From: Chromohalobacter nigrandesensis
Lineage (GTDB): Bacteria; Pseudomonadota; Gammaproteobacteria; Pseudomonadales; Halomonadaceae
DNA length: 64,000 bases
Reading direction: 5' to 3'
Assembly (NCBI RefSeq): GCF_023061285.1
Contig: NZ_JAKGAM010000012.1
Span: 1-64,000, forward strand
Below the pieces are notes generated by a model that was not told the DNA's origin, did no database searches, and was given only the letters and a program-made list of their open reading frames with translations. The position numbers and the translations under genes are program-made. Position 1 is the first letter of the stretch. Each line of letters starts with the position of its first letter. This document shows, in pieces, positions 1-53,589 of the stretch.

Positions 1-172
1 AGCGCTATGGAATTCAGCCGACGCACGCGGCTACCTGCTGCCCCGCCCCTCGCCAAGCCACGCGATGCTAGGCATCAAGGCGGCGCTTCGCTATGCTGCA
101 AGGCGTGAAACTCAGGGCTGCTCACGAGGCGGCTCCATAACAACACACTGCAAATTCCGTAGAGAGCTTTCC

Positions 173-10861: not shown

Positions 10862-12235
10862 TCACCCCAACTGAAACGGATATACCGCGCCGATGCCCAG
10901 TAGCTGCGTCAGTTCATCCAGGGCGGTGAGCGATTCCCGGGCGAGTTGCGGGTCGGCGAGATCGGCGGGCGTCAGCCGATCACGATAATGCCGCTCGACC
11001 CAGGCGGTGAGGTCGCCATGCAGGACCTCGTCGAGCAACACGCGGCCACCCAGCGCTTGGCGTTCGGCCGACGAGAGCGCGACGCGCAGGCGCAGACACG
11101 CCGGGCCGCCGCCGTTGCGCATGCTCTGCTTGACGTCCTTGACCAGCACCTCGCTGATGGGGTTGTACCCCGCCAACAGCAGGTCCTGAATCGTCCGCCA
11201 CACGGTTTCATTTTCCTGACACTCGCCAGGCACGACCAGCGTCATGCTGCCGTCAGGGTTGGAGAGCAGTTGCGAGTTGAACAGGTACGTCGACACCGCA
11301 TCCTCGAGACTGACCGCCTCGCTCGGCACCCGCACCGGGATCAGCGGCGACGCCATCCGTGCGCGCAGCGCGTCCAGCGTGGCGTCTTCATCCCGAAACG
11401 CCATATCGTGATAGAGCAGCACCGGGCCATTGCCGACGGCGATGACGTCGTTATGGAAGACACCGGCATCGATGGCCTCGGGATTTTGCTGGGCGAACAC
11501 CGTCTGCGCGTCGCTCAAGCCATGCTGCCGGGCGATCGCCTGGCTCGCCTCCAGGGTCTGGCGCGCGGGATAGCGCGTGGGGCCGTGTTGCCCGCCGAAC
11601 GCCTGGCGACCGTAGACGAAAAGATGCACGCCGGGCTCGCCATGCGCGCCGCTCAACCGGGTGTGATTGGCCGCGCCTTCGTCGGAGAAGGCCGGCGTCG
11701 CCGGCAGCACCGGGTGATGCGCGAAGTGCGTCTCGTCGCGGAACATCGCCGCCAGCACGCGCGCGGTGGTGCGCGGTTCGAGGTAGCGATGAAAGCTCGA
11801 TTGCAGATTCGCGGCGGTGAAATGTACGCGGCCATCCGGGGCATCCGCGCTCGGCGTCACGGTCGCCGCGTTGGCCGTCCACATCGACGAGGCCGAGCAT
11901 ACCGCGCGCAGCAGTTGTGGGGCTTCCTGGGCCGCTCGCGCCAGCACGCTCGCGTCATCACCGGTAAAGCCGAGATCGCGCAGCGCGCCCAGGTCGGGGC
12001 GTTGCTGGGGCGGCAACACGCCTTGCGCGTAGCCGGCCTCCATCAGCGACTTCATCTTGTCGAGCCCCTGCAACGCCGCCTCGCGGGGATTGGCCGTAAG
12101 CCCCTCGTGGCGCATCGACGCTACGTTGCCATGCGCCAGCCCGGCGTAGTTGTGGGTCAGTCCTACCAGGCCGTCGAAATTGACCTCGCGTACCTCTTTA
12201 CTCATAGAACCTTCACTCATAGCACCTTCGCTCAT
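10862..12235 (-). CDS. astB: N-succinylarginine dihydrolase
   Basis: A 457-residue enzyme of the AST pathway that converts N2-succinylarginine to N2-succinylornithine with release of two NH3 and CO2. It has the guanidino-group modifying fold, with [20 protein letters not shown] at the N-terminus, HNDVIAVGN (catalytic His region) and [12 protein letters not shown] (catalytic Cys) near the C-terminus. The first ATG overlaps the astD stop codon (ATGA). Three ATGs occur in a 15-bp periodic array; the third, at 12205, matches the usual family start ([15 protein letters not shown]). It is the last gene of the cluster: astE does not follow. Confidence 0.95.
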
Positions 12236-12237
12236 AG
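12193..12237 (-). repeat. 15-bp tandem repeat over the astB start (three start codons)
   Basis: The astB start region consists of three near-identical 15-bp units of the form CTATGAGYGAAGGTK. Each unit carries an ATG and the first two carry a GAAGG ribosome-binding-site-like core correctly spaced (6-7 bases) before the next ATG. The third unit has diverged to AAAGAGG. Confidence 0.7.
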
Positions 12238-13719
12238 CGTCACCCCCGGCGGCAGGGTATCGGGCAGGCTAAGCGTCTCGGTTTCCATCGAAGCGACCGG
12301 ATAGGCGCAGTAATCGGCGGCGTAATAGGCACTCGGGCGGTGGTTGCCGCTATCGCCGATACCGCCGAACGGCGCGTCGCTGGAGGCGCCGGTGGTCTGG
12401 CGGTTCCAGTTGACGATGCCGGCACGGATGCGCAGCAGGAAGTCATCCCAATCGGCCTGCTCACCGCCGATCAGCCCCGCCGACAGGCCATAGCGGGTAT
12501 CGTTGGCCAGGGCGATGGCCTCGTCCCAATCATGATAGCGATGCACTTTGAGCAGCGGCCCGAAGTGCTCCTCGTCGGGCACCTCGCAGCCGGTGACGTC
12601 GATCAGCCCCGGCGAGAGGATGCTGGTGCCCTCCTCCAGGCGACGCAGCGGCGCGAGTATTCGCCCGCCGCGTGCGACGAAATCGTCTTGGGCTGCCAGC
12701 AAGCCATCCGCGGCCTCGACGCTGGCCAATCCCGCATAGAACGGCGGCGGTTCGCTGAACGGCCCCGCCACGCGCAGCGCGCCAATGGCATGTACCAGCG
12801 CTTCGAGCAACGCATCGCCGGCCGCCCCCTGGGGCACGATCAAACGCCGCGCGCAAGTGCAACGCTGGCCGCCGGAGGCGAACGCCGACTGCAGAATCGA
12901 CAGTACCGCCGCGTCCTGATCCGGCACGTCCTTGACCACCAGCGGATTGTTGCCGCCCATTTCCAGCGCCAAGATCTTGTCGACCTGGCCGCCGAACTGG
13001 CGATGCAGAAGCCCGCCGATCTTGGCGCTTCCGGTGAACAGCAAGCCGTCGATGTCGGCGCTGCCGGCCAATGCCTGACCAACCTCGGCCGCGCCCTGCA
13101 CCAGATTGATCACACCGGCGGGCAGGCCCGCCTCGAGCCAGCATTGCAGCGTCAGATCGGCGGTCATCGGCGTCTGCTCGCTGGGCTTGAAGACCACCGC
13201 GTTGCCGGCCAAAAGCGCCGGGACGATATGCCCGTTGGGCAGATGCCCGGGGAAGTTGTATGGGCCGTATACCGCCAACACGCCATGCGGGCGGTGGCGC
13301 AGCACCGCACGGCTGCCGCCGACATCCCGCGCGCGTTCGCCGGTACGCTCATGATAGGCGGTGATCGAAATTGCCACCTTGCCGATCATCGCGCCGATCT
13401 CGGTACGCGCCTCCCACAGCGGCTTGCCAGTTTCCTGCGCGATGCTCGTCGCCAGCGCCTCGCGATTGGCTTCCAGACGCTCGCGGAAGCGCTCGACCAC
13501 CGCCTGACGTTCTTCGAAGCTGTGACGCGCCCAGGCGGGAAACGCCCGGCGTGCGCCGGCTACCGCCGCTTCGACCTGGGCCGCGCTGGCCGCGCTGGCA
13601 CTCCATAGTGTCTCGCCGGAGACGGGGTCGGTCTTGTCGAAACGCGCGGCATCACCCTCGACCCAGGCGCCGTCGATCAGCAACTGCTGTTTGGGTTGCA
13701 TATGTCGCTCCTGATTCAT
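12232..13719 (-). CDS. astD: Succinylglutamate-semialdehyde dehydrogenase
   Basis: A 495-residue NAD-dependent aldehyde dehydrogenase of the AST pathway, oxidising N-succinylglutamate semialdehyde to N-succinylglutamate. Family motifs are complete: the cofactor region [20 protein letters not shown] and FKPSEQTP, the Gly-rich FTGSAKIGG, the general base in [11 protein letters not shown], and the catalytic cysteine in [10 protein letters not shown]. It starts at 13719, or at an ATG six codons in. It overlaps astB by 4 bp. The region just upstream of its start is a run of nine 7-bp repeats that separates it from astA. Confidence 0.95.
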
Positions 13720-13725
13720 TTGTAA

Positions 13726-13788
13726 GCTACGAGCTACGAGCTACGAGCTACGAGCTACGAGCTACGAGCTACGAGCTACGAGCTACGA
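13726..13788. repeat. Nine perfect copies of a 7-bp repeat (GCTACGA)
   Basis: The 63 bases from 13726 to 13788 are exactly nine tandem GCTACGA units (TCGTAGC on the coding strand of the AST operon). The tract ends 6 bp upstream of the astD start codon, within the 161-bp gap between astA and astD, and so lies in or next to its ribosome binding region. Perfect identity of all copies indicates recent expansion or active slippage. Confidence 0.95.
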
Positions 13789-13880
13789 AAAGCAGTATTC
13801 GGCCACGCTGAAAGCTCGCAATCCTTTTCCCGAAGCCCGTCGCTGACAGCTTATGACTTCTCACTCCCGGCGCAGCCGGA

Positions 13881-14897
13881 TTACGTCTCGAGCAGGCGCA
13901 AGCGGTCGCCCGCACCGACGCCGAGACGCCGAGCCTCATCCGCGCTCAACGTGAGCACGCCATCCGCACTGGGCCCGCGTCCGATCCAGGCGGCTCGGAA
14001 TTCGCTAATGTTCGCCGTCGCTACCAACCAGGTCGGGCGTTCGACACTGGCGGCCTCGTCCACGATCTCCACAGGATAGGACGCCGAGTCGCGCACCGCG
14101 CGTACATCGTCGATATAGGCCTCCACCGTGGGGCCGCCGTCGAAGATGTCGATGTAGCCCTCCCAGCGCAGCCCTTCCTTCCTGAGCATTTCCAGCGCCG
14201 GGCGGGTGTGCTCGTGAACCGCGCCGATGCAGGCCCGCGCTTCTTCGGACAGAAACGGCGTGTAAATCGGGAACTTGGGCATCAGCTCGCCGATGAAGCT
14301 TTTCTGCCCGAGGCCGGTCAGGCGGTCGGCCTCGTTGAAGTTCATGGGAAAGAAGTGGCTGCCCAGGCATTCCCAGAACGCGCTGGTGCCGTTCTCGTCG
14401 AAGCGCCCGCGCATCTCGGCAAGCACCTTGTCAGGGAAGCGATCGCGAAACTCGGCGATAAACAGCCAGCGCGCCTTGGACAGCAAGGCGCCGTTGCGAT
14501 CGCGTCGGTATTCGGGGCGCAGATACAGCGAGCAGACTTCGGCATCGCCGGTATGGTCGGAACTGAGAAACAGCGTATCGATGGTGCGATGCAAGTCGAG
14601 CTGCACCGACGAATGCGCCAGAGTGCCCAGGCGATAATTGTAGAATGGCACTTCGCGGCCGACCTGCGCCTCGATGGCGCAACATCCGGCCAGCTCGCCG
14701 TTGGCGTCGTCTTCGAGCACGAAGAAATACAGCCGGTCGTCGATGGCGCTGCGCTCCTCGAAGGCGCTGACCGCGTGTTCGATCTTGGCAGCGAGGAAGT
14801 CGCGATTGTCGGGCAACGAGGTGAACCCCACGCCGGTCTGCCAAGCCATGGCTTGCAGACTATCGATATCGCGACGTTCGATGGGTCGAATGCGCAT
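13881..14897 (-). CDS. astA: Arginine N-succinyltransferase, AstA/AruG subunit
   Basis: A 338-residue acyltransferase that succinylates the alpha-amino group of L-arginine using succinyl-CoA, the first step of the AST pathway. Matching blocks include RPIERRDIDSLQAMAWQTG, GFTSLPDN, YNYRLGTLAHSS, LLSKARWLFIAEF, KSFIGELMPKFPIYT and YIDIFDGGPTVEA, which are the hallmark segments of AstA. It is closest to the canonical single-subunit AstA and to pseudomonad AruG. The ATG shares a base with the stop codon of the upstream paralogue (TGATG), implying translational coupling and heteromer assembly as for AruF-AruG. Confidence 0.92.
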   Translation of the reverse strand: MRIRPIERRDIDSLQAMAWQTGVGFTSLPDNRDFLAAKIEHAVSAFEERSAIDDRLYFFVLEDDANGELAGCCAIEAQVGREVPFYNYRLGTLAHSSVQLDLHRTIDTLFLSSDHTGDAEVCSLYLRPEYRRDRNGALLSKARWLFIAEFRDRFPDKVLAEMRGRFDENGTSAFWECLGSHFFPMNFNEADRLTGLGQKSFIGELMPKFPIYTPFLSEEARACIGAVHEHTRPALEMLRKEGLRWEGYIDIFDGGPTVEAYIDDVRAVRDSASYPVEIVDEAASVERPTWLVATANISEFRAAWIGRGPSADGVLTLSADEARRLGVGAGDRLRLLET

Positions 14898-15961
14898 CAG
14901 GTTTCTCCCTCGTCGAACTCATCCAGGACGCTGGGCAATGCCATTGGCGCGGCCAGGACCGCGCGACCTTCCTCGACGCCCAGCAACTCGGCATGCTCGG
15001 GCGTGAGCATCAACTGCCCGGTGGGCGACAGCGCATAGCGCGCCACCAGGCAGCGGAAGCCGCCCAGTTGCTGATTGGCGATCAACGCCGGTTCGGCATC
15101 CGGCAGCACGTTGCCGGGGCGCAAGCGTACCGGATGCCAACTGGCCTGGCGGACGCTCTGCAGACGGTCACGCTCGCCGCGCACCACCGGCCCGCCATCG
15201 AAGATATCCACGTGCCGCGAGCGCACGAAGCCTTCGCCGAGCATTTCCTCGAGCGCGCCCTCGTGGTCGGGGTGTTCGCGGCCGATGGCGGCACGCGCCT
15301 GGGGCGTGAGCAAGGGTAGGTAGAGCGGGAACTGCGGCATCACCTCGGCGATGAAGCTCTTCGAGCGTACCCCGGCCAGCAGGTTGATCTCCTGAAAGCC
15401 ACGCGCAAAGAAGTGCCGCCCGACGCTGTTCCAGAACGGCGACTCGCCCTCGGCATCGAGATAGCCCGGGAAAGCCACGGCCAGAATCGAGGCGAAGCGC
15501 TCGGGGTACTGCGCGATGAACATCAACCGCGCGCGCCGCAACAGGCTCTCGGCGCTGGTGCCCTTGTAACGCGCGTCCAACGACAGCGCGCACAAAAGCG
15601 TGGTCTCGGAAGTCTCGTGCGACAGCGACAGGGTCTGCACCTCGCGGCGCACGTTGAGCTGTTGCGAGGCGTGGATCAGCGTTTCCTGACGATAGGTGTA
15701 GTAGGCATCCATGGCGCCCGCCTGGGCACGAATGCTGGCGGTCCCCACTACTTCGTCAAGCTCGAGATCCTCGAGCACGAAGGTATAGGCCTCGTCTTCG
15801 GGAAAATCGACCTCGCGCGCCAGGGCCCGCGTCGAGCGCGCAATACGCTCCTCGAGGCGGTCGCGATGCGCCGGCAGATTGGTCAGGCGCGGCGTGGCAC
15901 TGCCCGCCAGGCGCTCCAGTGCCGGCAAGTCGCGGGGTTGAACGGGGCGAACGACAAGCAT
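14897..15961 (-). CDS. aruF: Arginine N-succinyltransferase, AruF-like subunit
   Basis: Paralogue of the downstream astA with the same block order (VRPVQPRDLPALERLAG, LTNLPAH, YYTYRQETLIHASQQL, KSFIAEVMPQFPLYLPLL, HVDIFDGGPVV), giving 354 residues from the ATG at 15961. Pseudomonads have such a pair (AruF alpha, AruG beta) that form a heteromeric arginine/ornithine succinyltransferase. An upstream ATG at 15988 overlaps the astC stop codon; 15961 was preferred because it aligns with family starts (MLVVRP) and has GAGAGA nine bases upstream. Confidence 0.9.
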   Translation of the reverse strand: MLVVRPVQPRDLPALERLAGSATPRLTNLPAHRDRLEERIARSTRALAREVDFPEDEAYTFVLEDLELDEVVGTASIRAQAGAMDAYYTYRQETLIHASQQLNVRREVQTLSLSHETSETTLLCALSLDARYKGTSAESLLRRARLMFIAQYPERFASILAVAFPGYLDAEGESPFWNSVGRHFFARGFQEINLLAGVRSKSFIAEVMPQFPLYLPLLTPQARAAIGREHPDHEGALEEMLGEGFVRSRHVDIFDGGPVVRGERDRLQSVRQASWHPVRLRPGNVLPDAEPALIANQQLGGFRCLVARYALSPTGQLMLTPEHAELLGVEEGRAVLAAPMALPSVLDEFDEGET

Positions 15962-15984
15962 GGCAATGTCTCTCGATTGCGGGT

Positions 15985-17277
<1,293 letters not shown>

Positions 17278-43465: not shown

Positions 43466-44881
43466 TTAATCGCGCGACACGATCTTCAACCCATGACGGC
43501 GCAGCTTGCGCACCACGCTAGGCTGACTGATGCCCAGGCGCTCGGCCATGGCGTAGGTGCTCGACAAACGCGTCGCCAACTCGCCGAGGATCTCAGCCTC
43601 GACGGCCTCCAACGTTTCACGCAAGGAGCGTCCCTCTTCCAGCGTCGCCAGCGGGCTACTTCCACTTGCCGCCGTACTCACGCGCGCCGACGCCACGTCA
43701 CGCTCCTCCATCGGCGCGCCAATGACACCGCCCTCGGCGGATAGCCAGGCGCGTTCGAGCCAATTCTCCAGCTCGCGCACGTTCCCCTGCCAGTCGCCGC
43801 CCATCAACTCCGGCCACACGCGCGGATGCAACACCTTGTCCATGCCGTAGCGCTCATTGAGCCTGGCGAGCTGGCGTTCCGCGAGGCCGGGAATATCTTC
43901 ACGGCGCTCGCGCAGGGGCGGTAGCGTGACGGGAATCACGTTGAGCCGATAATAAAGATCGAGTCGAAAACGCCCTTCCTCCACGCGTTGCGCCAAGTCC
44001 TGATTGGTGGCGACCACCAGGCGAAAATCGACCCGCCGCGAACGCGTATCGCCCAGTCGCGTCAGATAACCGTCCTGGATCACCTTCAGCAGCTTGCTCT
44101 GCATGGCCAGAGGCAACTCGCCGATCTCGTCGAGAAACAGCGTCCCCTTGTGGGCCTGCTCCAGGAGCCCGGCCTTGCCCATCCGCGCGGCACCGCTGAA
44201 CGCGCCGGGTTGATAGCCAAACATTTCGGATTCGAACAGCGACTCGGGGATCGCCGCGCAATTGACGTCCACGAAGGCGCCATCGCAACGCTGGCTCCAG
44301 CGGTGCAACTGGCGAGCGAAGGCCGTCTTGCCAACCCCCGACTCGCCGAGCATCAGCACCGTGGCGTCGGTCGGCGCCACCCGCTTGATGAGGTGCGCCA
44401 CCTCGTGCATGACCTGACTGCGCACCTCCAGCGATTCCAGTTCCAACGCATCCCCCGATGCCGGACTACCGCCACGCTTGAGATGCTCATTGAAGCGGCG
44501 CTGGAGAAGTGCGTATTCGTCTTGCAGCAGGCGCAGATCGGTCATGTCCATGGAACGACTGATGACGCGTACCAAGCGCCCGGAGGCGTACACCGGGTAG
44601 GCCTCGGCGATCACCTGGCGTCCCGTACCGGTGCGTTGCATGACCTGCGCCGGCTGACCGGTTCGAATGACCTCGAGCGAGACCGAGGGCGATAGCACGC
44701 CGCGCGCCTCCAGTTCATAGACCGTGGTCGCGCACAACGACTCACGGCTCATGCCATAGACGGCGGCACTGCCCGGGCTGACATCCAGCACCTGACCATC
44801 GACATCGACGATGAAGACATGATCGTGGCCGGTATGAATCAGTGCCTCGAGCGTTCGCGCGTCGATATCGTGTTCTTGCAT
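43466..44881 (-). CDS. PAS-domain sigma-54-dependent transcriptional activator
   Basis: A 471-residue enhancer-binding protein. A PAS sensor domain (residues 11-110) precedes a sigma-54-interacting AAA+ domain with Walker A GESGVGKT (179-186), Walker B GTLFLDEIG (246-254) and the sigma-54 contact loop GAFSGA (226-231, where the usual sequence is GAFTGA). A Fis/TyrR-like helix-turn-helix closes the protein (TYAMAERLGISQPSVVRKLRRHG). It diverges from the guanidino-compound cluster and a -24/-12 promoter lies in the gap, so it is the obvious activator; the PAS domain suggests sensing of a small ligand. Function resembles RocR-type regulators of arginine catabolism. Confidence 0.88.
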   Translation of the reverse strand: MQEHDIDARTLEALIHTGHDHVFIVDVDGQVLDVSPGSAAVYGMSRESLCATTVYELEARGVLSPSVSLEVIRTGQPAQVMQRTGTGRQVIAEAYPVYASGRLVRVISRSMDMTDLRLLQDEYALLQRRFNEHLKRGGSPASGDALELESLEVRSQVMHEVAHLIKRVAPTDATVLMLGESGVGKTAFARQLHRWSQRCDGAFVDVNCAAIPESLFESEMFGYQPGAFSGAARMGKAGLLEQAHKGTLFLDEIGELPLAMQSKLLKVIQDGYLTRLGDTRSRRVDFRLVVATNQDLAQRVEEGRFRLDLYYRLNVIPVTLPPLRERREDIPGLAERQLARLNERYGMDKVLHPRVWPELMGGDWQGNVRELENWLERAWLSAEGGVIGAPMEERDVASARVSTAASGSSPLATLEEGRSLRETLEAVEAEILGELATRLSSTYAMAERLGISQPSVVRKLRRHGLKIVSRD

Positions 44882-44899: not shown

Positions 44900-44957
44900 T
44901 TGCATCAAGATACAATAGTGGATCACCAATCGCCGCCGAGCAATGCATCTTTGCATC
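44900..44957. promoter_or_regulatory. Candidate upstream activator sites for the sigma-54 activator
   Basis: TTGCATCAAGATACAA (44900-44915) is a dyad, TTGCATC with GATACAA, with one mismatch. A second region (44943-44957) has ATGCATC and TTGCATC eight bases apart. The half-site TTGCATC thus recurs about 50 and 100 bp upstream of the -24/-12 promoter, the usual position for enhancer sites. Confidence 0.45.
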
Positions 44958-44997
44958 AGTCATGGCGCTAAGTTATTGATTATAGTCACTCCTAAAC

Positions 44998-45013
44998 TTG
45001 GCATGGTTCGTGC
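44998..45013 (+). promoter_or_regulatory. Sigma-54 (-24/-12) promoter
   Basis: TTGGCATGGTTCGTGC matches the consensus TTGGCAY-R-N4-TTGC, with GG and GC dinucleotides at the required 10-bp interval and only one -12 base different (GTGC instead of TTGC). It lies 54 bp upstream of the first gene of the guanidino cluster and next to a sigma-54 activator gene. Confidence 0.8.
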
Positions 45014-45066
45014 CTGCAATAAATCAGTACCAACAACAATTCACTGCTTCCCACCAGGAGCCAAGC

Positions 45067-46029
45067 ATGAGCAATCACGACGCCTCGCATCTCAACCAAC
45101 CCTTGGGCGGCAACGAGATGCCCCGCTTCGGCGGCATCGCGAGCATGATGCGTCTGCCCACCCAGGCGGACGCCGACGGGCTCGATGCCGCCTTCGTCGG
45201 CATCCCCATGGACATCGGCACCTCGAACCGCCCCGGCACCCGTCTGGGGCCGCGCCAGATCCGCGACGAATCGCGCATGCTGCGCCCCTACAACATGGCC
45301 ACCCGCGCGGCGCCATTCGACAGCCTGCAAGTAGCGGATACCGGCGATGTAGCAATCAACACCTTCGACCTAAAGAAAAGCGTCGAGATCATCCGCCAAC
45401 ATTACCGTGAGCTACTTAGCCACGACGCCGTGCCACTGACGCTCGGCGGGGATCACACCCTGACATGGCCGGTGTTGCAGGCGATTGCCGAGAAACACGG
45501 TCCGGTGGGGCTGATTCACATCGACGCCCACGCCGATATCAATCCGCACATGTTCGGTGAGGAGGTCGCCCACGGCTGCCCGATTCGCCGCGCTCAGGAA
45601 GAAGGCCTGCTGGATAGCCAACGCGTGATCCAGATCGGTCTGCGCGGTACCGGCTATGCCGCCGACGATTTCGACTGGTGTCGCGACCAGGGCTTTCGCG
45701 TCGTCACCGCCGAGCAGTGCTGGTACAAGTCGCTGGAACCGCTGATGGCCGAGGTGCGCGATCAGATGGGCGACCGCCCCGTGTACATCACCTTCGACAT
45801 CGACGCCCTCGACCCCTCGGTAGCGCCCGGCACGGGCACCGTCGAGGCAGCCGGCCTGACCATGTCGCAAGGCCTCGAGATCGTCCGTGGGGCCTGGGGC
45901 TTGAATATCGTCGGCGGCGACCTGGTCGAAGTCGCGCCGCCCTACGACCCCAGCGGCAACACCGCGCTGATGGGCGCCACGGCACTCTATGAAATGCTCT
46001 GCGTGCTACCCGGCGTCAAGCGCCGTTAA
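45067..46029 (+). CDS. gbuA: Guanidinobutyrase / agmatinase-family ureohydrolase
   Basis: A 320-residue binuclear-manganese ureohydrolase that hydrolyses a guanidino group to urea and an amine. The metal motifs are complete: GGDHTLTWP (near 128-136), DAHADINPHMF (near 153-163) and TFDIDALDPSVAPGTGT (near 243-258). The N-terminal LNQPLGGNEMPRFGGIASMMRLP and C-terminal YEMLCVLPGVKRR blocks match GbuA (4-guanidinobutyrase) of pseudomonads better than SpeB. The product would be 4-aminobutyrate plus urea. First gene after the sigma-54 promoter. Confidence 0.9.
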   Translation: MSNHDASHLNQPLGGNEMPRFGGIASMMRLPTQADADGLDAAFVGIPMDIGTSNRPGTRLGPRQIRDESRMLRPYNMATRAAPFDSLQVADTGDVAINTFDLKKSVEIIRQHYRELLSHDAVPLTLGGDHTLTWPVLQAIAEKHGPVGLIHIDAHADINPHMFGEEVAHGCPIRRAQEEGLLDSQRVIQIGLRGTGYAADDFDWCRDQGFRVVTAEQCWYKSLEPLMAEVRDQMGDRPVYITFDIDALDPSVAPGTGTVEAAGLTMSQGLEIVRGAWGLNIVGGDLVEVAPPYDPSGNTALMGATALYEMLCVLPGVKRR

Positions 46030-46073
46030 GTCTGCCTCGGCATTGGGGCTCTACAACAACAAGTGGTGACATC

Positions 46074-47465
46074 ATGTCCGCACCCCTCGATTCCACCGCC
46101 TCTGGCGGTAGCAATCCCGATCACGCGCGGCTGACGTCGCGCGGACTACTCAAGTTTCTCATCCCCTCGCTGATCGGTATCGGCATGTTTCTGGTGCCCT
46201 TCTCGACAGGCGATACCATCAATATCGGCATGGGACTGCTCGCCGATGGCCTCAAGGCGCTTCTAGGCGACGCATTACCGGCCATCGCCATGGCCGTGCT
46301 ATGCGCTTCGGCACTGCTGACCCTGCTCGTCAAGTTCTCCAAACCCCACTGGGCCCGCGAAAATGCCTTAGGTGAACTGTTCGACGTCGAGCCGCTGTGG
46401 ATGGCGATGCGCCTGCTGGGTGCCGCCTTCGCGCTCATGACCTACTTCCAGATCGGCCCCGAGTTCGTGACCGCTTCGTTCACCGGCGGAGTGATGCTCA
46501 ACGACCTAGCGCCGGTCCTACTGACCTTTTTCTTCTTCGCCGCCATCCTGCTGCCATTCCTGGTCGACTTCGGCTTCATGGAATTCATCGGCAGCCTGGT
46601 GCGTACCCCCTTCCGCAAGATTTTCGGTCTACCGGGGCGCAGCGCCATCGACGCCACCGCTTCGTGGATGGGCTCGGGCACCGTGGGCGTACTGATCACC
46701 ACGCAGCAATACGAGCAGGGCTATTACAACCGACGTGAAGCCTCGACCATCGCCACCAATTTCTCCATCGTCTCGATTGCCTTTGCACTGCTGGTGACCA
46801 ACTTCATCGGCATCAATCACCTCTTTGTCCCGTTTTACCTCACCGTGGTTGTGGCGGGATTGGTGGCTGCAGTGATCGTCCCGCGCCTGCCGCCGCTCTC
46901 GCGCAAGCCGAATACCTACTACGAACCGGTGGGTTGCCGCCTCGCCGAGGAACGCACCGGCACCCAAGGCCTGTTCCGCTACAGCCTCGGCATGGCCGTC
47001 TCACGGGCCGACCAGGCCCCCGGCCCGCGCCAGCTGGTGCGGCACGCCCTGCTGAACGTGGCCGACATCTTCTTCGGCCTGCTGCCCCTGGTCATCGCCA
47101 TCGGGACCGTGGCCCTGATCCTGGCCGAGTTCACGCCGCTGTTCACCTGGCTTTCGTACCCGATGGTGCCAGTCCTCGAATGGATGCGCGTGCCCGAAGC
47201 GGCGGCCGCCGCGCCGGCCACGCTGGTGGGCTTCGCGGACATGTTCCTGCCCGCCGTGCTGGCCAGCGATATCGAGAGCGAACTTACCCGCTTCGTGATC
47301 GCCTGCCTGTCGTTGACGCAGTTGATCTACATGTCGGAAATCGGCGCCTTGCTGCTCAAGTCCAAGATTCCGCTCAAGCTCTGGGAACTGGTCATCATCT
47401 TCCTGCTGCGTACCGCCATCACGTTGCCGATCATCGTCGTGATGGGCCACTGGCTGGTGGCTTAA
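46074..47465 (+). CDS. YjiH-like membrane protein with nucleoside-recognition (Gate) domains
   Basis: A 463-residue polytopic membrane protein with about ten hydrophobic segments. It has FLIPSLIGIGMFLVPFSTGDTINIGMGLLADG and the Gate-type motifs SWMGSGTVGVLITTQQYEQGYYNRREASTIATNFSIVSIAFA and MSEIGALLLKSKIPL. Proteins of this family (E. coli YjiH) probably act as a transporter or a transport partner; the substrate is unknown. Being inside the guanidino cluster, it may import the inducing compound. Confidence 0.82.
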   Translation: MSAPLDSTASGGSNPDHARLTSRGLLKFLIPSLIGIGMFLVPFSTGDTINIGMGLLADGLKALLGDALPAIAMAVLCASALLTLLVKFSKPHWARENALGELFDVEPLWMAMRLLGAAFALMTYFQIGPEFVTASFTGGVMLNDLAPVLLTFFFFAAILLPFLVDFGFMEFIGSLVRTPFRKIFGLPGRSAIDATASWMGSGTVGVLITTQQYEQGYYNRREASTIATNFSIVSIAFALLVTNFIGINHLFVPFYLTVVVAGLVAAVIVPRLPPLSRKPNTYYEPVGCRLAEERTGTQGLFRYSLGMAVSRADQAPGPRQLVRHALLNVADIFFGLLPLVIAIGTVALILAEFTPLFTWLSYPMVPVLEWMRVPEAAAAAPATLVGFADMFLPAVLASDIESELTRFVIACLSLTQLIYMSEIGALLLKSKIPLKLWELVIIFLLRTAITLPIIVVMGHWLVA

Positions 47466-47475
47466 GGTGCTTCCC

Positions 47476-49113
47476 ATGACCACCGAAACGAATTCGCCTT
47501 ATCTTCGCTCGATTAGCTGCGCCGAGGCGCTGGTCCGGCTGCTGCGTGACAGTTACGCCGTGGATACCGTCTTCGGCATCCCCGGCGTGCATACCGTGCC
47601 GCTGTATCGTGGACTGGAAGCAGGCGGTCTGCGCCATGTCACGCCGCGCCACGAACAGGGCGCAGGGTTCATGGCGGACGGCTACGCCCGTGCCAGCGGT
47701 AACCCCGGGGTCTGCTTCATCATCACCGGACCGGGGATGACCAATATCGCCACCGCCATGGGCCAGGCACTGGCCGATTCCGTGCCCATGCTGGTGATCT
47801 CCAGCGTCAACCGCCGCGACACCTTGGGACGCGGCCAGGGGCGACTCCACGAGTTGCCCAGCCAGCAGAACGTGCTGGCGGGCGTTAGTCGTTTCAGCCA
47901 TACCCTGCTTGACCCGAGCGCTTTGCCCGAAGTCCTGGCGCGCGCTTTTGCGGTCTTTCGTTCCGAGCGGCCAGGGCCGGTGCATATCGAAATTCCCATC
48001 GATCTTTTCGATGCGCCGATCTCCCTACCCACCGAGTACGCACCGGCAAGGCTCTATCGTCCCGCGCCGCACCCCGACGGCGTAGCACTCGCCGCCGAGT
48101 GGCTGCGCGAGGCTCATGCTCCGCTGGTGTTATTGGGGGGCGGCTGTGCGGACGCATCAAAATCGGCTCGGGCGCTGGTCGAACATCTCGACGCACCGAC
48201 CGTGACCACCATCAACGCCAAGGGGGTACTTGGACGCGGGCACCCACTCGACCTGGGTGCCAACGCCACCTGGCCCGAGGTCCGTGCGCTGGCTAGCGAC
48301 GCCGACGTTATCCTCGCCGTGGGTACCGAACTCGGCGAAACCGATTACGATGTGGTATTCGATGAGGGCTTCACCCTGACCGGACGCTTGATTCGCATCG
48401 ACCTGGAAGCGGAGCAACTGGTGCGCAATCAGGCTACGGCGCTGGGCCTTGTCAGTGACACCGGTATCGCGCTGTCGGCTCTGCTGGCGCATTTCCCCAC
48501 CCCACTCGCGCGTCAGGGTGCGAAGCGCACCCGCGCCATCCATGAAGCACTGGCGCTGCCGACGCGTCCGGACATGGCGCCGTTCGTGCCGCTTTATGCC
48601 GCGCTCGATCACGCCTTGCCCGAGGCCATCATCGTCGGCGACTCCACCGCGCCGGTCTACGCCGGCAATCATCTCGTCGAACGTGCGGCGCCACGTCGTT
48701 ACTTCAATGCCTCGACCGGCTACGGCACCTTGGGATACGGCCTACCGGCGGCGCTTGGCGCCCAACTGGCCAAGCCCGGCACGCCGGTCGTGGCCCTGGT
48801 CGGCGATGGCGGCTTGATGTTCACCCTCAGCGAGCTGGCCACCGCCGTCGACGAAGGGCTGCCGGTGGTCGTGGTGCTCTGGAACAACGCCGGTTACGAG
48901 GAAATCCGCCGTTACATGGACGCGCATGGTGTCGCGCGCATCGGCGTCGACCCCACGCCGCCCGATTTCCAGCGCTTGGCCGAAGGCTTCGGCCTCACCT
49001 CGCAGCGCATCGAATCTCCCGCCGCTCTCGGCCTCGCACTCAGCAACGTCTCGCGTAACGCACCCACGCTGATCGAGATCGATGCCGAACGCTGGCAAGC
49101 GGCACTCGGCTGA
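47476..49113 (+). CDS. aruI: ThDP-dependent decarboxylase, 5-guanidino-2-oxopentanoate decarboxylase (AruI-like)
   Basis: A 545-residue thiamine-diphosphate enzyme of the acetolactate-synthase/decarboxylase superfamily. The catalytic glutamate is in PRHEQGAGFMADGYAR (about residue 60) and the ThDP motif is VGDGGLMFTLSELATAVDEG...VLWNNAGYEEI (about residues 440-475). The pattern fits AruI, which decarboxylates 2-ketoarginine to 4-guanidinobutyraldehyde in the arginine transaminase pathway. Next to a guanidinobutyrase and an aldehyde dehydrogenase, this is the most likely role. The ATG at 47476 has AAGG eight bases upstream. Confidence 0.85.
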   Translation: MTTETNSPYLRSISCAEALVRLLRDSYAVDTVFGIPGVHTVPLYRGLEAGGLRHVTPRHEQGAGFMADGYARASGNPGVCFIITGPGMTNIATAMGQALADSVPMLVISSVNRRDTLGRGQGRLHELPSQQNVLAGVSRFSHTLLDPSALPEVLARAFAVFRSERPGPVHIEIPIDLFDAPISLPTEYAPARLYRPAPHPDGVALAAEWLREAHAPLVLLGGGCADASKSARALVEHLDAPTVTTINAKGVLGRGHPLDLGANATWPEVRALASDADVILAVGTELGETDYDVVFDEGFTLTGRLIRIDLEAEQLVRNQATALGLVSDTGIALSALLAHFPTPLARQGAKRTRAIHEALALPTRPDMAPFVPLYAALDHALPEAIIVGDSTAPVYAGNHLVERAAPRRYFNASTGYGTLGYGLPAALGAQLAKPGTPVVALVGDGGLMFTLSELATAVDEGLPVVVVLWNNAGYEEIRRYMDAHGVARIGVDPTPPDFQRLAEGFGLTSQRIESPAALGLALSNVSRNAPTLIEIDAERWQAALG

Positions 49114-49182
49114 GGCGCCATTCGCGTCCCGAAAAGGCTTCTCAAGAACAACGGCTTCCCAAAACATTACAAGGACAACACC

Positions 49183-50517
49183 ATGGCTTTCTTCCACCGT
49201 CTGCTCGGTCAGGACACCCTCGACGACCACCAGCACAAGAGCCTCGGGGCATTCGGCACTGTCGCCCTATGGCTCGGCGCCAACGTCGTGGTCACTACCA
49301 TCCTCACCGGCATGCTCCTGGTGCCCGACCTGCCCTTCACGACCGCCATGGGCAGCGTACTGATCGGCTCGCTGATCGGTGCCATCCCTCTTTTACTAGT
49401 CGGCCTGATGGGGCAGCGTACCGGCCTGCCCTCCATGGCGCTGACCCGAAGGGCCTATGGGCCACTTGGCAGTCGGCTGATTTCACTGGTCAACATGGGG
49501 GTGTTGATCGCCTGGAGCTGGATCCAGGCCCTGCTTGCCGGCATGAGCCTCGACTACGCTATCCAGGCCACCACCGGTTACTCCAACCTACCCTTGATGA
49601 CCATCCTCTGCGAAAGCGTGGTGGTTCTCATCGTACTGCGTGGCCACCTGGGCATCGAACGGGTCGAGCGCTGGGCAGCAATGGCCATGGTCGGCCTCGC
49701 CGCCCTAGTCCTCTATCAGTTGAATCTTCACTATGATGTCTCGACGCTCTTGGACATGCCTGTCGAAGCGCGTAACGGCATCACGCTGGGGATCGCCTTC
49801 GACATCGTCATCGCCACCGCCTTCTCGTGGATCTCGTCCTCGGCGGATTACAACCGCAACTGCAAGAGCGGCGCCATCGCCGTCTGGGGCACCTACATTG
49901 GCTATGTGATGGCCGCCATGATCGCCATGGGCCTGGGCGCCGCAGTCTCCGGGCTCTCGGTCCTGAATGGCATGGAGCAGACCTACGACCCGACCCGGCT
50001 GCTCTCCGGTTTCGGCTTCGGCCTGCCCGCAGCCCTGGTCATCTTCTTCTCCGTGATGACTACCAATGTCATGGCCGTCTACAGCGCCACCCTGTCCTGC
50101 ATGAACGTGTCGCCCGGCATGGCCTTCTGGAAACCGGCGCTGATCATCGGGGTCGTGACCGTCTTCGGCGCCCTGATTCCCGGCATACTCGATCAATTCC
50201 AAAACTTCCTGCTATTAATAGGCGCTTTGTTCATTCCGGCCTTCTCGGTGATCATCGTCGATTACTACCTGGTCGGTCGCGACGGCTACAGTCCCGAGCT
50301 ACTCAAGGCGCGTCACCAGCTGGGACGTCCCACTGCGCCGGTGGCCATCGGTGCCTACGTGATCGGCGCCGGGCTGGCCGCCTATTGGTCGCTGGTCGCC
50401 CCGCTGGCCTTCGGCGCCTCGCTGCCGGTCTTCATCATCACCGGCGGCCTCTACTGGCTCGGCGCCATGCTGTTGACCAAGTCCCGTGCGAACGCTTCAC
50501 AGACGACAGGAGAGTGA
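49183..50517 (+). CDS. NCS1-family permease (cytosine/purine permease type)
   Basis: A 444-residue carrier with 12 hydrophobic segments of the nucleobase:cation symporter-1 family. Motifs near the N-terminus (GTVALWLGANVVVTTILTG) and ALTRRAYGPLGSRLISLVNM, ISSSADYNRNCKSGAIAVWGTYIGYVM are typical of this family. NCS1 members import nucleobases, hydantoins, and other N-heterocyclic compounds. The place in the operon suggests uptake of a guanidino compound, which is an inference. Confidence 0.87.
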   Translation: MAFFHRLLGQDTLDDHQHKSLGAFGTVALWLGANVVVTTILTGMLLVPDLPFTTAMGSVLIGSLIGAIPLLLVGLMGQRTGLPSMALTRRAYGPLGSRLISLVNMGVLIAWSWIQALLAGMSLDYAIQATTGYSNLPLMTILCESVVVLIVLRGHLGIERVERWAAMAMVGLAALVLYQLNLHYDVSTLLDMPVEARNGITLGIAFDIVIATAFSWISSSADYNRNCKSGAIAVWGTYIGYVMAAMIAMGLGAAVSGLSVLNGMEQTYDPTRLLSGFGFGLPAALVIFFSVMTTNVMAVYSATLSCMNVSPGMAFWKPALIIGVVTVFGALIPGILDQFQNFLLLIGALFIPAFSVIIVDYYLVGRDGYSPELLKARHQLGRPTAPVAIGAYVIGAGLAAYWSLVAPLAFGASLPVFIITGGLYWLGAMLLTKSRANASQTTGE

Positions 50518-50522
50518 CACCG

Positions 50523-51305
50523 ATGAGACTAATGCTGGCGCAAACCGCCCCCGTATGTGGCGACGTGGCCGCCAACCTGGCGTCTCTCCCGCGCCAGTGC
50601 CAGCAGGCAGCAGCAGCCGGTGCGGACCTACTGGTCCTCCCCGAGCTTGCCCTGAGCGGCTACAACATCTTCGAGCGACTGGAGGAACTCGCCGAGCCGG
50701 TAGGCGGCCCAATCGCCCAGCGAGCCGCCAAACTCGCCGCCGAGCACGAGATGTTCTTGCTCTTCGGCCTTGCCGAACGGCAAGCCGACGGACGCCTGAC
50801 CAATTCCGCCGTGCTGATCGACGACCGGGGCGAGCATATCGCCACCTATCACAAGCGCCAGCTGTGGGATCGCGAACATGCCTTCTTCACCGCCGGCGAG
50901 GAATGCTGCGTGGTGGATACGCGTCTCGGCCGTCTCGGGCTGATGATCTGCTATGACAATGAGTTTCCCGAGATGGCCAGAGCACTCGCCACAAGCGGCG
51001 CGCAGATCATTCTTTCACCCACCGCCAACATGGTGCCCAACGCTGAACGTCAAGCGCTGCAGATTCGTGCCCGAGCCCTCGACAATCAATGCTTCGTCGC
51101 TTGCATCAACCGGGCAGGGATGGAGGCCGAACTTCACTATTGCGGCAACAGCTTGATAGCAGGGCCGGATGGCGAGGTTCTGGGCCGTCTCGGTGCCGAC
51201 GCAGGAAGCTTGGTGGTGGACATCGACCTGGAACGTATCAACGAGAGTCGTGCCCATCAGGACTATCTCAAAGATCTCAGACCCATACCGGAGGCCACCT
51301 TATGA
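50523..51305 (+). CDS. Carbon-nitrogen hydrolase (nitrilase superfamily amidase)
   Basis: A 260-residue amidase with the Glu-Lys-Cys triad: E41 in LVLPELALSGYN, K111 in TYHKRQLW and C143 in GLMICYDNEFPE. It is of the branch that includes N-carbamoylputrescine amidase and omega-amidases, so it could hydrolyse 4-guanidinobutyramide or another amide. The ATG at 50523 is the natural one and lies 6 bp after the permease stop codon. Its stop codon overlaps the ATG of the next gene (ATGA). Confidence 0.9.
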   Translation: MRLMLAQTAPVCGDVAANLASLPRQCQQAAAAGADLLVLPELALSGYNIFERLEELAEPVGGPIAQRAAKLAAEHEMFLLFGLAERQADGRLTNSAVLIDDRGEHIATYHKRQLWDREHAFFTAGEECCVVDTRLGRLGLMICYDNEFPEMARALATSGAQIILSPTANMVPNAERQALQIRARALDNQCFVACINRAGMEAELHYCGNSLIAGPDGEVLGRLGADAGSLVVDIDLERINESRAHQDYLKDLRPIPEATL

Positions 51306-52045
51306 GCGGCTTCTTACTCCCTCGAGGAAAAACCGCAACCTGGTATCGCACCACGGCACTCGCTGACGGCATCACGCGGATCGACGAGCCCGCCATCAAG
51401 CCGTTCTACCGCTGCAACATCTGGCATGTACGGGGTCGGGATCGGGACTTGTTGGTGGACTTCGGGCTCGGCGCCGTGCCGCTACGCAGGCAGGTACCGC
51501 TACTCAGCGAACGCGACCTGATCGCAGTGGCGAGCCACACGCACTTCGATCATATTGGTGCCGCTCACGAGTTCGAGTGTTGCCATGTGCATGCCGCCGA
51601 GGCCGACATCCTGGCCAGCCCGGACAACTCGCGCACCCTGGCCGCCGACTTCCTCGATGACGCCATGTTCGATGCCCTGCCACCGGCGCCCTTCGAATAC
51701 CATAGCTACCGTATCGCCCCACCGGCGTGCATCGTCACGCTCGAGGATGGCGAAATCATCGATCTCGGCGACCGCCGTTTCGAGGTCATCCACACGCCGG
51801 GGCATTCCCCTGGCGGTATCGCGCTATGGGAAGCCGCCAGCGGTACCTTGATCTCGGGCGATCTGATCTATGACGGGCCGCTGATCGAGGATGTCTATCA
51901 CAGCAACCTCGACGATTACGCCGCCAGTATGCGCCGACTACGCGAACTCCCGGCGCGTATCGTCCATGGTGGCCATTTTCCTAGCTTTTCCGGGGCACGC
52001 TTACACGCCATGATCGACGATTGGCGCCGTGAGCACGCCCTTTGA
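51302..52045 (+). CDS. MBL-fold metallohydrolase
   Basis: A 247-residue metallo-beta-lactamase-fold hydrolase with zinc motif ASHTHFDHIGAAHEFE (HxHxDH), IHTPGHSPGGIAL (third His) and TLISGDLIYDGPLI (Asp), and a final GGHFPSF. All metal ligands for two ions are present. The role is not known; it overlaps the nitrilase gene by 4 bp and precedes the aldehyde dehydrogenase by 10 bp, so it belongs to the same operon. Confidence 0.88.
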   Translation: MSGFLLPRGKTATWYRTTALADGITRIDEPAIKPFYRCNIWHVRGRDRDLLVDFGLGAVPLRRQVPLLSERDLIAVASHTHFDHIGAAHEFECCHVHAAEADILASPDNSRTLAADFLDDAMFDALPPAPFEYHSYRIAPPACIVTLEDGEIIDLGDRRFEVIHTPGHSPGGIALWEAASGTLISGDLIYDGPLIEDVYHSNLDDYAASMRRLRELPARIVHGGHFPSFSGARLHAMIDDWRREHAL

Positions 52046-52055
52046 AGGAGTCTTC

Positions 52056-53504
52056 ATGCAACAGCTCGATCAGCAGTTTATCGACAATCGCTGGGTGGTT
52101 AGCCAAGGCACGCGGCGCCTGGCGGTGATGGACCCGTACCATGAGCGCCAGATCGCCGAGGTCACGGGCGGCGATACCGCAGACGTCGACGCGGCAGTTG
52201 ACGCCGCACGTCGCGCCCTGCCCGCTTGGCAAGCGCTGGGCGGCGAAGTGCGCGGGGCGTATCTGGAGGCGCTGGCCGATGCCCTCACGGCGCGCCGCGA
52301 AGCGCTGATGGAGCTTTCCGCGACCAACAACGGCAAGGCGCTCGCCGAGGCCGGCATCGACCTCGACGACGCCATCGCCTGCTATCGTTACTACGCACGC
52401 CAGGCACGCGAGCTGGAAGCCCGACAGGGGCGGCGTATCACGCATGATATTGAAGGCGTCGATGCCTACTGCTACGAAGATCCTGCTGGGGTGATCGGCT
52501 TGATCACGCCGTGGAACTTCCCGCTGGTAACCAGCGCCTGGAAGATCGCCCCGGCCCTGGCCGCGGGCTGCACAGTGGTTTTCAAACCCTCTGAAGTGGT
52601 GCCGCTGCCGGAGCAGGCGCTGGCCGAGATCGCTCTGGAAATCGCGCTACCGCCCGGCGTTCTCAATCTGCTGCACGGCGATGGCGACGGCATCGGCGCG
52701 CCACTGACGCGCCATGCGGGTATCGACAAGCTCTCCTTCACGGGCAGCAACGCCGTGGGCGAACGCGTGATGCAAGCCGCCGCCGAAGGCAGTCGCGGGG
52801 TGTCACTGGAGCTCGGCGGCAAATCGCCGATCCTGGTGCTCGACGATGCCGAGATCGATCAGGCCGCCGACTGGGTCATGGCCGGCATCTACTTCAATAG
52901 CGGACAGATTTGCTCGGCGACTTCGCGCTTGATCGTGCATGAATCGCTGACCGAGGCACTTTATGAAGCGCTGGCGACACGCATCGACGCGATCCGCCTG
53001 GGCAACCCGCTGGGCACGGAAACCGACATGGGACCGATGACCAGCCAGCGTCAGCGCGACCGCGTGCGCGATTATCTGGCCATCGCCGAGCGCGAAGGCC
53101 TCCAGGCAGTACGCGATGCCCGCCATCGGCAACTGCCGGAACAGGGCTACTTCATCGCCCCCACCCTGTATCGTGATGTGCCCACCGAGAGCCGCTTGTG
53201 GCGCGAGGAGATCTTCGGGCCGGTCCTGTGTGGGCGTAGCGTCGCTTCCGACGACGAGGCCATCGCGTTGGCCAATGCCAGCGACTTCGGCCTGGCCGCC
53301 ACGGTGATCAGTGGCGACCCTCAACGCGCCAGGCACGTCGGCAGAGCCCTGCGTGCCGGCAACATCTGGTACAACAGTGAGCAGATCGTCATGCCGGAAG
53401 CCAGCTGGGGCGGTTTCGGGCATAGCGGCATAGGCCGCGAACTGGGTCCCTGGGGACTCGCCGCCTATCTCGAGGTCAAGCACCTGATCGGCCCGGCGGA
53501 CTGA
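52056..53504 (+). CDS. Aldehyde dehydrogenase (predicted 4-guanidinobutyraldehyde dehydrogenase)
   Basis: A 482-residue NAD(P)-dependent aldehyde dehydrogenase of the betaine-/aminobutyraldehyde dehydrogenase type. Key residues: cofactor loop GLITPWNFPLVTSAWKIAPALAAG, FKPSEVVPLPEQAL, general base E252 in LELGGKSP and nucleophile C286 in GQICSATSR. The ATG has AAGGAG seven bases upstream. It is last of the operon. By context it oxidises 4-guanidinobutyraldehyde (product of AruI) to 4-guanidinobutyrate, the GbuA substrate; this is inference. Confidence 0.88.
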   Translation: MQQLDQQFIDNRWVVSQGTRRLAVMDPYHERQIAEVTGGDTADVDAAVDAARRALPAWQALGGEVRGAYLEALADALTARREALMELSATNNGKALAEAGIDLDDAIACYRYYARQARELEARQGRRITHDIEGVDAYCYEDPAGVIGLITPWNFPLVTSAWKIAPALAAGCTVVFKPSEVVPLPEQALAEIALEIALPPGVLNLLHGDGDGIGAPLTRHAGIDKLSFTGSNAVGERVMQAAAEGSRGVSLELGGKSPILVLDDAEIDQAADWVMAGIYFNSGQICSATSRLIVHESLTEALYEALATRIDAIRLGNPLGTETDMGPMTSQRQRDRVRDYLAIAEREGLQAVRDARHRQLPEQGYFIAPTLYRDVPTESRLWREEIFGPVLCGRSVASDDEAIALANASDFGLAATVISGDPQRARHVGRALRAGNIWYNSEQIVMPEASWGGFGHSGIGRELGPWGLAAYLEVKHLIGPAD

Positions 53505-53531
53505 CCGCAACGCACCGCACCGCACAACGAA

Positions 53532-53567
53532 AAATACCCCGCCGACATCGCGTTCGGCGGGGTATTT
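53532..53567. terminator. Bidirectional terminator at the end of the guanidino cluster
   Basis: A perfect 14-bp stem (AAATACCCCGCCGA with TCGGCGGGGTATTT) with an 8-base loop. It has A-rich and T-rich flanks suitable for termination in both directions, between the ALDH and the convergent suhB. Confidence 0.92.
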
Positions 53568-53589
53568 CGTGTGCTCGAGCCAAAAGGAC

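What the first reader, a model, noticed from the sequence alone, without database searches (positions are those of the whole stretch)
44900..53567. Sigma-54-controlled guanidino-compound catabolic cluster, an apparently unusual gene combination
Seen: a PAS-AAA+ sigma-54 activator (43466-44881) diverges from a -24/-12 promoter (44998-45013) and seven same-strand genes ending at a strong bidirectional terminator (53532-53567). They encode a guanidinobutyrase, a YjiH-like membrane protein, an AruI-like ThDP decarboxylase, an NCS1 permease, a nitrilase-family amidase, an MBL hydrolase and an aldehyde dehydrogenase. Known: in Pseudomonas aeruginosa the arginine transaminase route uses AruI, an aldehyde dehydrogenase and GbuA to make 4-aminobutyrate plus urea. 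Inference: the cluster degrades 2-ketoarginine or a related environmental guanidino compound; the nitrilase might open an amide intermediate such as 4-guanidinobutyramide. The arginine:pyruvate transaminase aruH is absent, while two transporters and two hydrolases of unknown role are present, so the true substrate may be something other than arginine.
Basis: partly seen in the sequence, partly recalled or inferred. Interest (0 to 1): 0.78.

Follow-up and report, generated by a model that had tools for sequence, protein, structure and literature searches.

The report
Modular guanidino-compound degradation operon
This is a real, sigma-54-controlled set of genes with which salt-loving bacteria probably break down arginine-like guanidino compounds to 4-aminobutyrate and urea; its core is common in related bacteria and has a relative in Pseudomonas, while three added genes probably let further compounds in.

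Summary
A sigma-54 activator diverges from a -24/-12 promoter and seven same-strand genes that end at a strong hairpin. The promoter is conserved (65 of 68 intergenic regions). The genome is a Chromohalobacter. "Unusual combination" does not hold: the core activator | guanidinobutyrase-YjiH-decarboxylase-aldehyde dehydrogenase is complete in 32 of 36 sampled loci and stands alone in 28, and a Pseudomonas aeruginosa gbuA locus has guanidinobutyrase, decarboxylase and MBL homologues with other permeases. NCS1 permease, nitrilase and MBL hydrolase are an accessory module. The nitrilase shares a cluster with guanidinobutyrase in 34 of 35 loci found (Halomonadaceae, Psychrobacter, Pseudomonas; the exception is a short contig), and 5 of 35 have no decarboxylase. 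So it probably feeds in 4-guanidinobutyrate directly, most simply from 4-guanidinobutyramide. The same window carries ast genes for L-arginine. In 15 of 19 Psychrobacter loci and in P. aeruginosa two different FAD hydroxyacid-dehydrogenase-type genes follow the decarboxylase, hinting that 2-ketoarginine may come from argininate. No activity was tested. New variant of a known kind.

The parts
43466..44881 (-). sigma-54-dependent activator (N-terminal sensory region, AAA+, HTH_50), divergent
   Evidence: orthologue upstream of gbuA in 67 of the 70 gbuA loci tallied
44998..45013 (+). -24/-12 promoter TTGGCATGGTTCGTGC
   Evidence: conserved in 65 of 68 intergenic regions
45067..46029 (+). gbuA, guanidinobutyrase (4-guanidinobutyrate to 4-aminobutyrate + urea, inferred)
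   Evidence: (best PDB match 3nio)
46074..47465 (+). YjiH-like membrane protein with Gate domain, presumed transporter
   Evidence: structure model too poor to use
47476..49113 (+). AruI-like ThDP decarboxylase (2-ketoarginine to 4-guanidinobutanal, inferred)
   Evidence: (NF005712, 788.8 vs cut-off 500)
49183..50517 (+). NCS1-type permease
   Evidence: below the cut-off of all three NCBIfam models it matches
50523..51305 (+). nitrilase-superfamily amidase, E41-K111-C143 invariant in the 8 sequences aligned
51302..52045 (+). metallo-beta-lactamase-fold hydrolase with the metal-ligand positions H79 H81 D83 H84 H168 D187 H225
52056..53504 (+). aldehyde dehydrogenase (nearest NCBIfam models: betaine- and aminobutyraldehyde dehydrogenase, below cut-off; 4-guanidinobutanal to 4-guanidinobutyrate, inferred)
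53527..53570 (.). strong bidirectional hairpin, presumed terminator

Best explanation
A catabolic operon for guanidino compounds that all funnel into 4-guanidinobutyrate. Step order, inferred from families: an activator senses an unknown inducer and opens a sigma-54 promoter (promoter supported by conservation, induction not shown). YjiH and NCS1 carry substrates in (inferred). Route A: the AruI-like enzyme decarboxylates 2-ketoarginine to 4-guanidinobutanal and the aldehyde dehydrogenase oxidises it to 4-guanidinobutyrate (inferred). Route B: the nitrilase-type amidase releases 4-guanidinobutyrate from an amide, most simply 4-guanidinobutyramide (inferred from the module's independence of route A). 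GbuA then splits 4-guanidinobutyrate into 4-aminobutyrate and urea (well supported by homology). The MBL hydrolase belongs with the NCS1 module; I guess that it opens or de-esterifies a form of the imported compound, and this step is not settled. L-arginine itself is probably served by the ast genes of the same window.
For: GbuA: best PDB match guanidinobutyrase 3nio, 2.6e-147; R72 (counted by hand in the alignment) and M161 conserved. R72 as a cap that could bind the carboxylate is stated in passages of PMC9772407; the weight of M161 is recalled. ThDP enzyme above the NCBIfam cut-off. Of the 60 tallied loci with decarboxylase none lacks the aldehyde dehydrogenase. Conserved -24/-12. In the 70 tallied gbuA loci nitrilase (10) and MBL (22) never occur without NCS1. 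Nitrilase in one cluster with gbuA in 34 of 35 loci, 5 of 35 without decarboxylase. ast genes at window 10862-15988.
Against: No biochemical or expression data. The source of 2-ketoarginine in this genome was not found: the transaminase probe gives no match, and 17 strong DAO-family hits could not be assigned. GbuA also passes the agmatinase equivalog cut-off (210.6 vs 174.3). The nitrilase is below every NCBIfam cut-off shown. The MBL matches only generic MBL structures, and relatives of 44-61% identity lie outside such clusters (L070-L074). An aldehyde dehydrogenase accompanies some loci without decarboxylase (L064, L076, L113). In the tree of 40 of 100 decarboxylases the gbuA-linked ones are not one clade: the second-locus paralogue is nearer to the window's than the gbuA-linked Psychrobacter and P. 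aeruginosa enzymes (midpoint root), and homologues sit in betaine-type contexts, so the family name alone does not prove 2-ketoarginine.
Confidence: 0.7

Rival explanations
1. Arginine route: the operon is the lower half of an L- or D-arginine transaminase/dehydrogenase pathway whose first enzyme lies elsewhere in the genome.
For: AruI, aldehyde dehydrogenase and GbuA are the known lower half of the P. aeruginosa route (recalled); passages of PMC2242806 describe an arginine oxidase/dehydrogenase route through 2-ketoarginine and 4-guanidinobutyrate. 17 strong DAO-family hits in the genome.
Against: No match to the transaminase probe in this genome (E limit 1e-60; the probe is not a verified AruH). 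The window has ast genes for arginine.
Confidence: 0.35
2. Hydroxy-acid route: 2-ketoarginine comes from argininate (2-hydroxy-5-guanidinovalerate) through a D-2-hydroxyacid dehydrogenase.
For: Two hardly similar FAD enzymes sit directly downstream of the decarboxylase in two lineages: Dld type in 15 of 19 Psychrobacter loci (NF008387, 679.7 vs cut-off 391) and GlcD type in the P. aeruginosa locus (TIGR00387, 219.4, below its cut-off 567.9; Pfam FAD-oxidase_C above). The latter has a 36% match in this genome (G000:C1:106826-108226).
Against: No such gene in the window cluster; no Dld match in this genome (a search without positive control). 4 of 19 Psychrobacter loci lack it. The genes may serve D-lactate or another hydroxy acid. 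The 36% match may be ordinary glycolate oxidase.
Confidence: 0.25
3. The nitrilase module handles an unrelated amide and merely shares the operon.
For: Best NCBIfam match is a nitrilase model far below its cut-off (144.6 vs 500); NCS1 permeases usually carry nucleobase- or hydantoin-like compounds (recalled).
Against: The nitrilase is in one cluster with gbuA in 34 of 35 loci, over three families of bacteria and two regulator types.
Confidence: 0.25
4. The decarboxylase acts on a non-guanidino 2-oxo acid (for example a trimethylammonium one).
For: Homologues lie next to a 2-trimethylaminoethylphosphonate dioxygenase-type gene (444.8 vs cut-off 400) and a choline-type binding protein (below cut-off), and beside BCCT and SRPBCC genes on a Psychrobacter plasmid, whose enzyme groups with the gbuA-linked Psychrobacter ones.
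Against: In the 60 tallied loci it lies with gbuA and an aldehyde dehydrogenase; a guanidino-acid-specific partner makes a guanidino substrate far more likely. The second-locus enzymes form their own clade.
Confidence: 0.07

Closest known systems
Pseudomonas aeruginosa gbuA locus (PAO1 PA1421-PA1415, numbering recalled; read here on plasmid NZ_CP131792.1, L081)
   Same: guanidinobutyrase (68%), AruI-like decarboxylase (55%) and MBL hydrolase (59%) in one same-strand run with an NCS1-type (cytosine) permease
   Different: LysR regulator instead of sigma-54 activator; sodium:solute symporter instead of YjiH; a permease with no BLASTP match to the window's NCS1 at 1e-3; a GlcD-type FAD enzyme and an NTF2-like protein; no nitrilase and no aldehyde dehydrogenase annotated in the run
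Arginine transaminase pathway (AruH, AruI, aldehyde dehydrogenase, GbuA; recalled)
   Same: the AruI, aldehyde dehydrogenase and GbuA steps
   Different: no transaminase in the cluster; added permease, amidase and MBL genes; sigma-54 control
Arginine oxygenase pathway (arginine 2-monooxygenase, 4-guanidinobutyramide amidase, guanidinobutyrase; recalled; the amidase reaction is named in a passage of PMC9943018)
   Same: an amidase beside guanidinobutyrase
   Different: no monooxygenase gene in the cluster; amidase specificity untested
Psychrobacter gbuA cluster (19 loci)
   Same: homologues of all seven genes
   Different: other order, LysR regulator, and in 15 of 19 an added Dld gene

Membership tests
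guanidinobutyrase (GbuA) | ureohydrolase metal motifs and the carboxylate-capping arginine R72 | tested here: met
   GGDH, HxDAHAD and DIDx motifs, R72 (by hand) and M161 conserved in the alignment with P. aeruginosa GbuA; PDB 3nio best match. It also passes the NCBIfam agmatinase equivalog cut-off (210.6 vs 174.3)
guanidinobutyrase (GbuA) | hydrolysis of 4-guanidinobutyrate to 4-aminobutyrate and urea | not testable with these tools
   no assay possible
5-guanidino-2-oxopentanoate decarboxylase (AruI) | score above the curated family cut-off | tested here: met
   788.8 bits against 500
arginine transaminase pathway | arginine:pyruvate transaminase AruH | tested here: inconclusive
   AruH-like probe finds nothing in this genome at 1e-60 and matches in its nine congeners, but the probe is not a verified AruH
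sigma-54-dependent operon | -24/-12 promoter with a sigma-54 activator gene next to it | tested here: met
   dependence on sigma-54 not shown
nitrilase superfamily | Glu-Lys-Cys triad (recalled as defining) | tested here: met
   E41, K111, C143 invariant in 8 sequences; Pfam CN_hydrolase 190.9 bits
4-guanidinobutyramide amidohydrolase | amidase activity on 4-guanidinobutyramide | not testable with these tools
   only gene linkage
metallo-beta-lactamase fold hydrolase | HxHxDH and the remaining metal ligands | tested here: met
   invariant in the 22 aligned sequences; fold matches in PDB

The most novel reading that the evidence does not exclude
The operon is a dedicated funnel for non-arginine guanidino compounds: argininate or 2-ketoarginine through a decarboxylase, and 4-guanidinobutyramide (or a cyclic or masked form opened by the MBL enzyme) through an NCS1-nitrilase-MBL module, shared between Halomonadaceae, Psychrobacter and Pseudomonas under two unrelated kinds of regulator.
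Probability: 0.3. Interest if true: 0.55.

Novelty: new variant of a known kind. Interest (0 to 1): 0.4.

Why it matters
It turns an odd-looking gene list into two separable routes into one enzyme, and names concrete substrates to test for a nitrilase-type amidase, an MBL hydrolase, an NCS1 permease and a YjiH protein to which I could give no specific function. It also warns that genes named 5-guanidino-2-oxopentanoate decarboxylase occur in at least two kinds of neighbourhood.

Tried and rejected
In-frame TGA in the second decarboxylase copy of all ten genomes of the genus: in the six copies read it is the ordinary terminal stop, so no recoding.

Horizontal transfer of NCS1 (97-100% in the four congeners L037-L040, 92-94% in L079 and L067 of another genus): fourfold-site identity is about that of its neighbours in L079 (56% against 47-65%) but somewhat higher in L038 (78% against 61-69%), so mainly strong constraint; not pursued.

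D-arginine dehydrogenase as the missing step: the ornithine-cyclodeaminase-family and DAO-family hits gave no clear candidate; the motif used is recalled, so this is weak. Amine-oxidase-family enzymes: two strong hits, not resolved further.

YjiH fold: mean pLDDT 61, not searched. MBL fold search: generic only. A palindromic activator site (TTGCATC-AA-GATACAA in the window and L037, a similar one in L060) is not conserved over the loci.

Literature: the P. aeruginosa locus-tag search matched mostly PA14_17... style tags where I looked, so it says nothing. Searches listed no paper that by title or start of abstract describes this cluster (searches printed 30 of 37 and 15 of 18). I saw listings, plus passages of PMC8844440, PMC6403454, PMC9943018, PMC2242806 and PMC9772407. 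Nakada and Itoh 2002 was seen only as a reference, not read.
Full report
What is there. The window belongs to a Chromohalobacter: its nearest relative among the genomes searched, G007 (97% in the decarboxylase), has the contig of 132,093 bases that names C. sarecensis (lineage). Refined gene starts are in the parts list. The -24/-12 element ends 53 bases before the gbuA start.

Is it more than chance? In 68 activator/gbuA intergenic regions TGGCA-N7-N-GC occurs in 65, against a mean of 0.7 in mononucleotide shuffles. Those shuffles do not keep dinucleotides, and related genomes are not independent, but the gap is large. The closing hairpin has z -5.1 and -5.8.

How common is it? GbuA at 1e-120 is in 170 of 250 family genomes. 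Of 36 loci picked at about even steps from the printed list, 27 have exactly activator | GBU-YJIH-THDP-ALDH and one more has a second aldehyde dehydrogenase. The other 8 are 2 with GBU-YJIH-THDP-NCS1-MBL-ALDH, 2 with GBU-YJIH-THDP-NCS1-ALDH, and one each of GBU-YJIH, GBU alone, GBU-YJIH-NCS1-ALDH and GBU-NCS1-NIT-MBL. So 32 of 36 hold the whole core, 4 do not. Over all 70 gbuA loci read (69 from the family and L046 from another family of the order; many chosen because they carry the decarboxylase, MBL or nitrilase) the decarboxylase is in 60, YjiH in 58, a sodium:solute symporter instead in 5, NCS1 in 26, MBL in 22, the nitrilase in 10 and an aldehyde dehydrogenase in 63. MBL or nitrilase never occurs there without NCS1; MBL relatives of 44-61% identity do lie elsewhere (L070-L074). 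In separate family searches MBL was found in 58 of 250 genomes and the nitrilase in 17 of 250. Two congeners, G002 and G004, have only the core.

Two routes. The nitrilase was then sought in named genomes: 35 loci. GBU is in the same cluster in 34; the other, L160, is a 6.5-kb contig that begins with YJIH. MBL is in 34 (not L162) and NCS1 in 34 (in L186 only a 180-residue NCS1-like frame was seen). In the Pseudomonas locus L185 the run is GbuR | GBU-YJIH-NCS1-NIT-MBL, without an aldehyde dehydrogenase. So an amidase that works with GbuA but without decarboxylase is the simplest reading, and 4-guanidinobutyramide the simplest substrate. This is inference from linkage.

The other route. The ThDP enzyme is above the family cut-off for 5-guanidino-2-oxopentanoate decarboxylase, and the 60 tallied loci with it all have an aldehyde dehydrogenase; the P. 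aeruginosa locus does not, in its run. In 15 of 19 Psychrobacter loci a Dld-type D-lactate dehydrogenase homologue follows the decarboxylase, and in the P. aeruginosa locus a GlcD-type FAD enzyme does. The two are hardly similar (best E 4e-6 in a two-sequence comparison). Such double recruitment suggests a D-2-hydroxy acid as source of the 2-oxo acid, that is argininate. The window cluster itself has no such gene, and a Dld search of this genome found none (no positive control).

Arginine itself. The window carries astB, astD and two AST/AOST-type genes at 10862-15988 (the 404-residue ORF 15985-17199 on the same strand was not searched), the ordinary L-arginine succinyltransferase route. This lowers, but does not remove, the case for L-arginine as the substrate here. 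The transaminase probe from a congener has no match in this genome, but that probe sits with a trimethylaminoethylphosphonate-dioxygenase-type gene and a choline-type binding protein, so it may not be an arginine transaminase.

Against. The gbuA-linked decarboxylases are not one clade: in a tree of 40 of 100 sequences the second-locus paralogue is nearer to the window's enzyme than the gbuA-linked enzymes of Psychrobacter and P. aeruginosa are. GbuA passes an agmatinase cut-off as well. The nitrilase passes no NCBIfam cut-off shown.

Relation to the known. The P. aeruginosa gbuA locus shares GbuA, the AruI-like enzyme and the MBL enzyme (68, 55 and 59% identity), so the Halomonadaceae operon is a variant of a known locus with another regulator, mostly another symporter and, in some genera, an added amidase. 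I found no paper in the held library that describes the Halomonadaceae version (searches, listings only).

Limits. Everything on substrates is inference. Structure work added little: the MBL model (mean pLDDT 83) matches generic MBL folds and the YjiH model is poor.

Noticed in passing
G000:C47:183955-185541 (L031 5456-7039) and L034, L051, L054-L056: Second AruI-like gene (64%) in a conserved neighbourhood of GlxA-type regulator, TmpA-like dioxygenase, mostly a choline-type binding protein, and a class I/II transaminase; the transaminase has no match in this genome but has one in its nine congeners searched. It looks like quaternary-ammonium rather than arginine catabolism.
   Followed up: partly
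window 10862-15988 (-): Arginine succinyltransferase pathway genes astB, astD and two AST/AOST-type subunits.
   Followed up: yes
window 65-940 (+): Lysine/arginine/ornithine-type ABC substrate-binding protein, a little below the family cut-off (231.5 vs 256.35).
   Followed up: no
L071 4676-9216: A 61%-identical MBL relative follows an ABC transporter run with PotD- and PotA-like parts (all below the NCBIfam cut-offs shown), which hints at cationic amine compounds for this MBL family; only this one locus was looked at.
   Followed up: partly
L100 2974-6903 (genome G030): gbuA with the same activator but followed by a 299-residue unknown, a 383-residue protein that looks by eye like a 2-oxoglutarate/Fe(II) oxygenase (no NCBIfam match) and a lysine/arginine/ornithine-type binding protein.
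   Followed up: no
L037 against window: Fourfold-site identity is 83-87% in activator, gbuA and yjiH but 95-99% from the decarboxylase onward, which looks like a recombination boundary.
   Followed up: no
L082 4184-16374: Psychrobacter plasmid with an AruI-like gene among BCCT, SRPBCC, VanB-type reductase and CaiB genes; it groups with the gbuA-linked Psychrobacter enzymes.
   Followed up: partly
L165 and 14 other Psychrobacter loci: Dld-type dehydrogenase between the decarboxylase and YjiH in 15 of 19 loci.
   Followed up: partly
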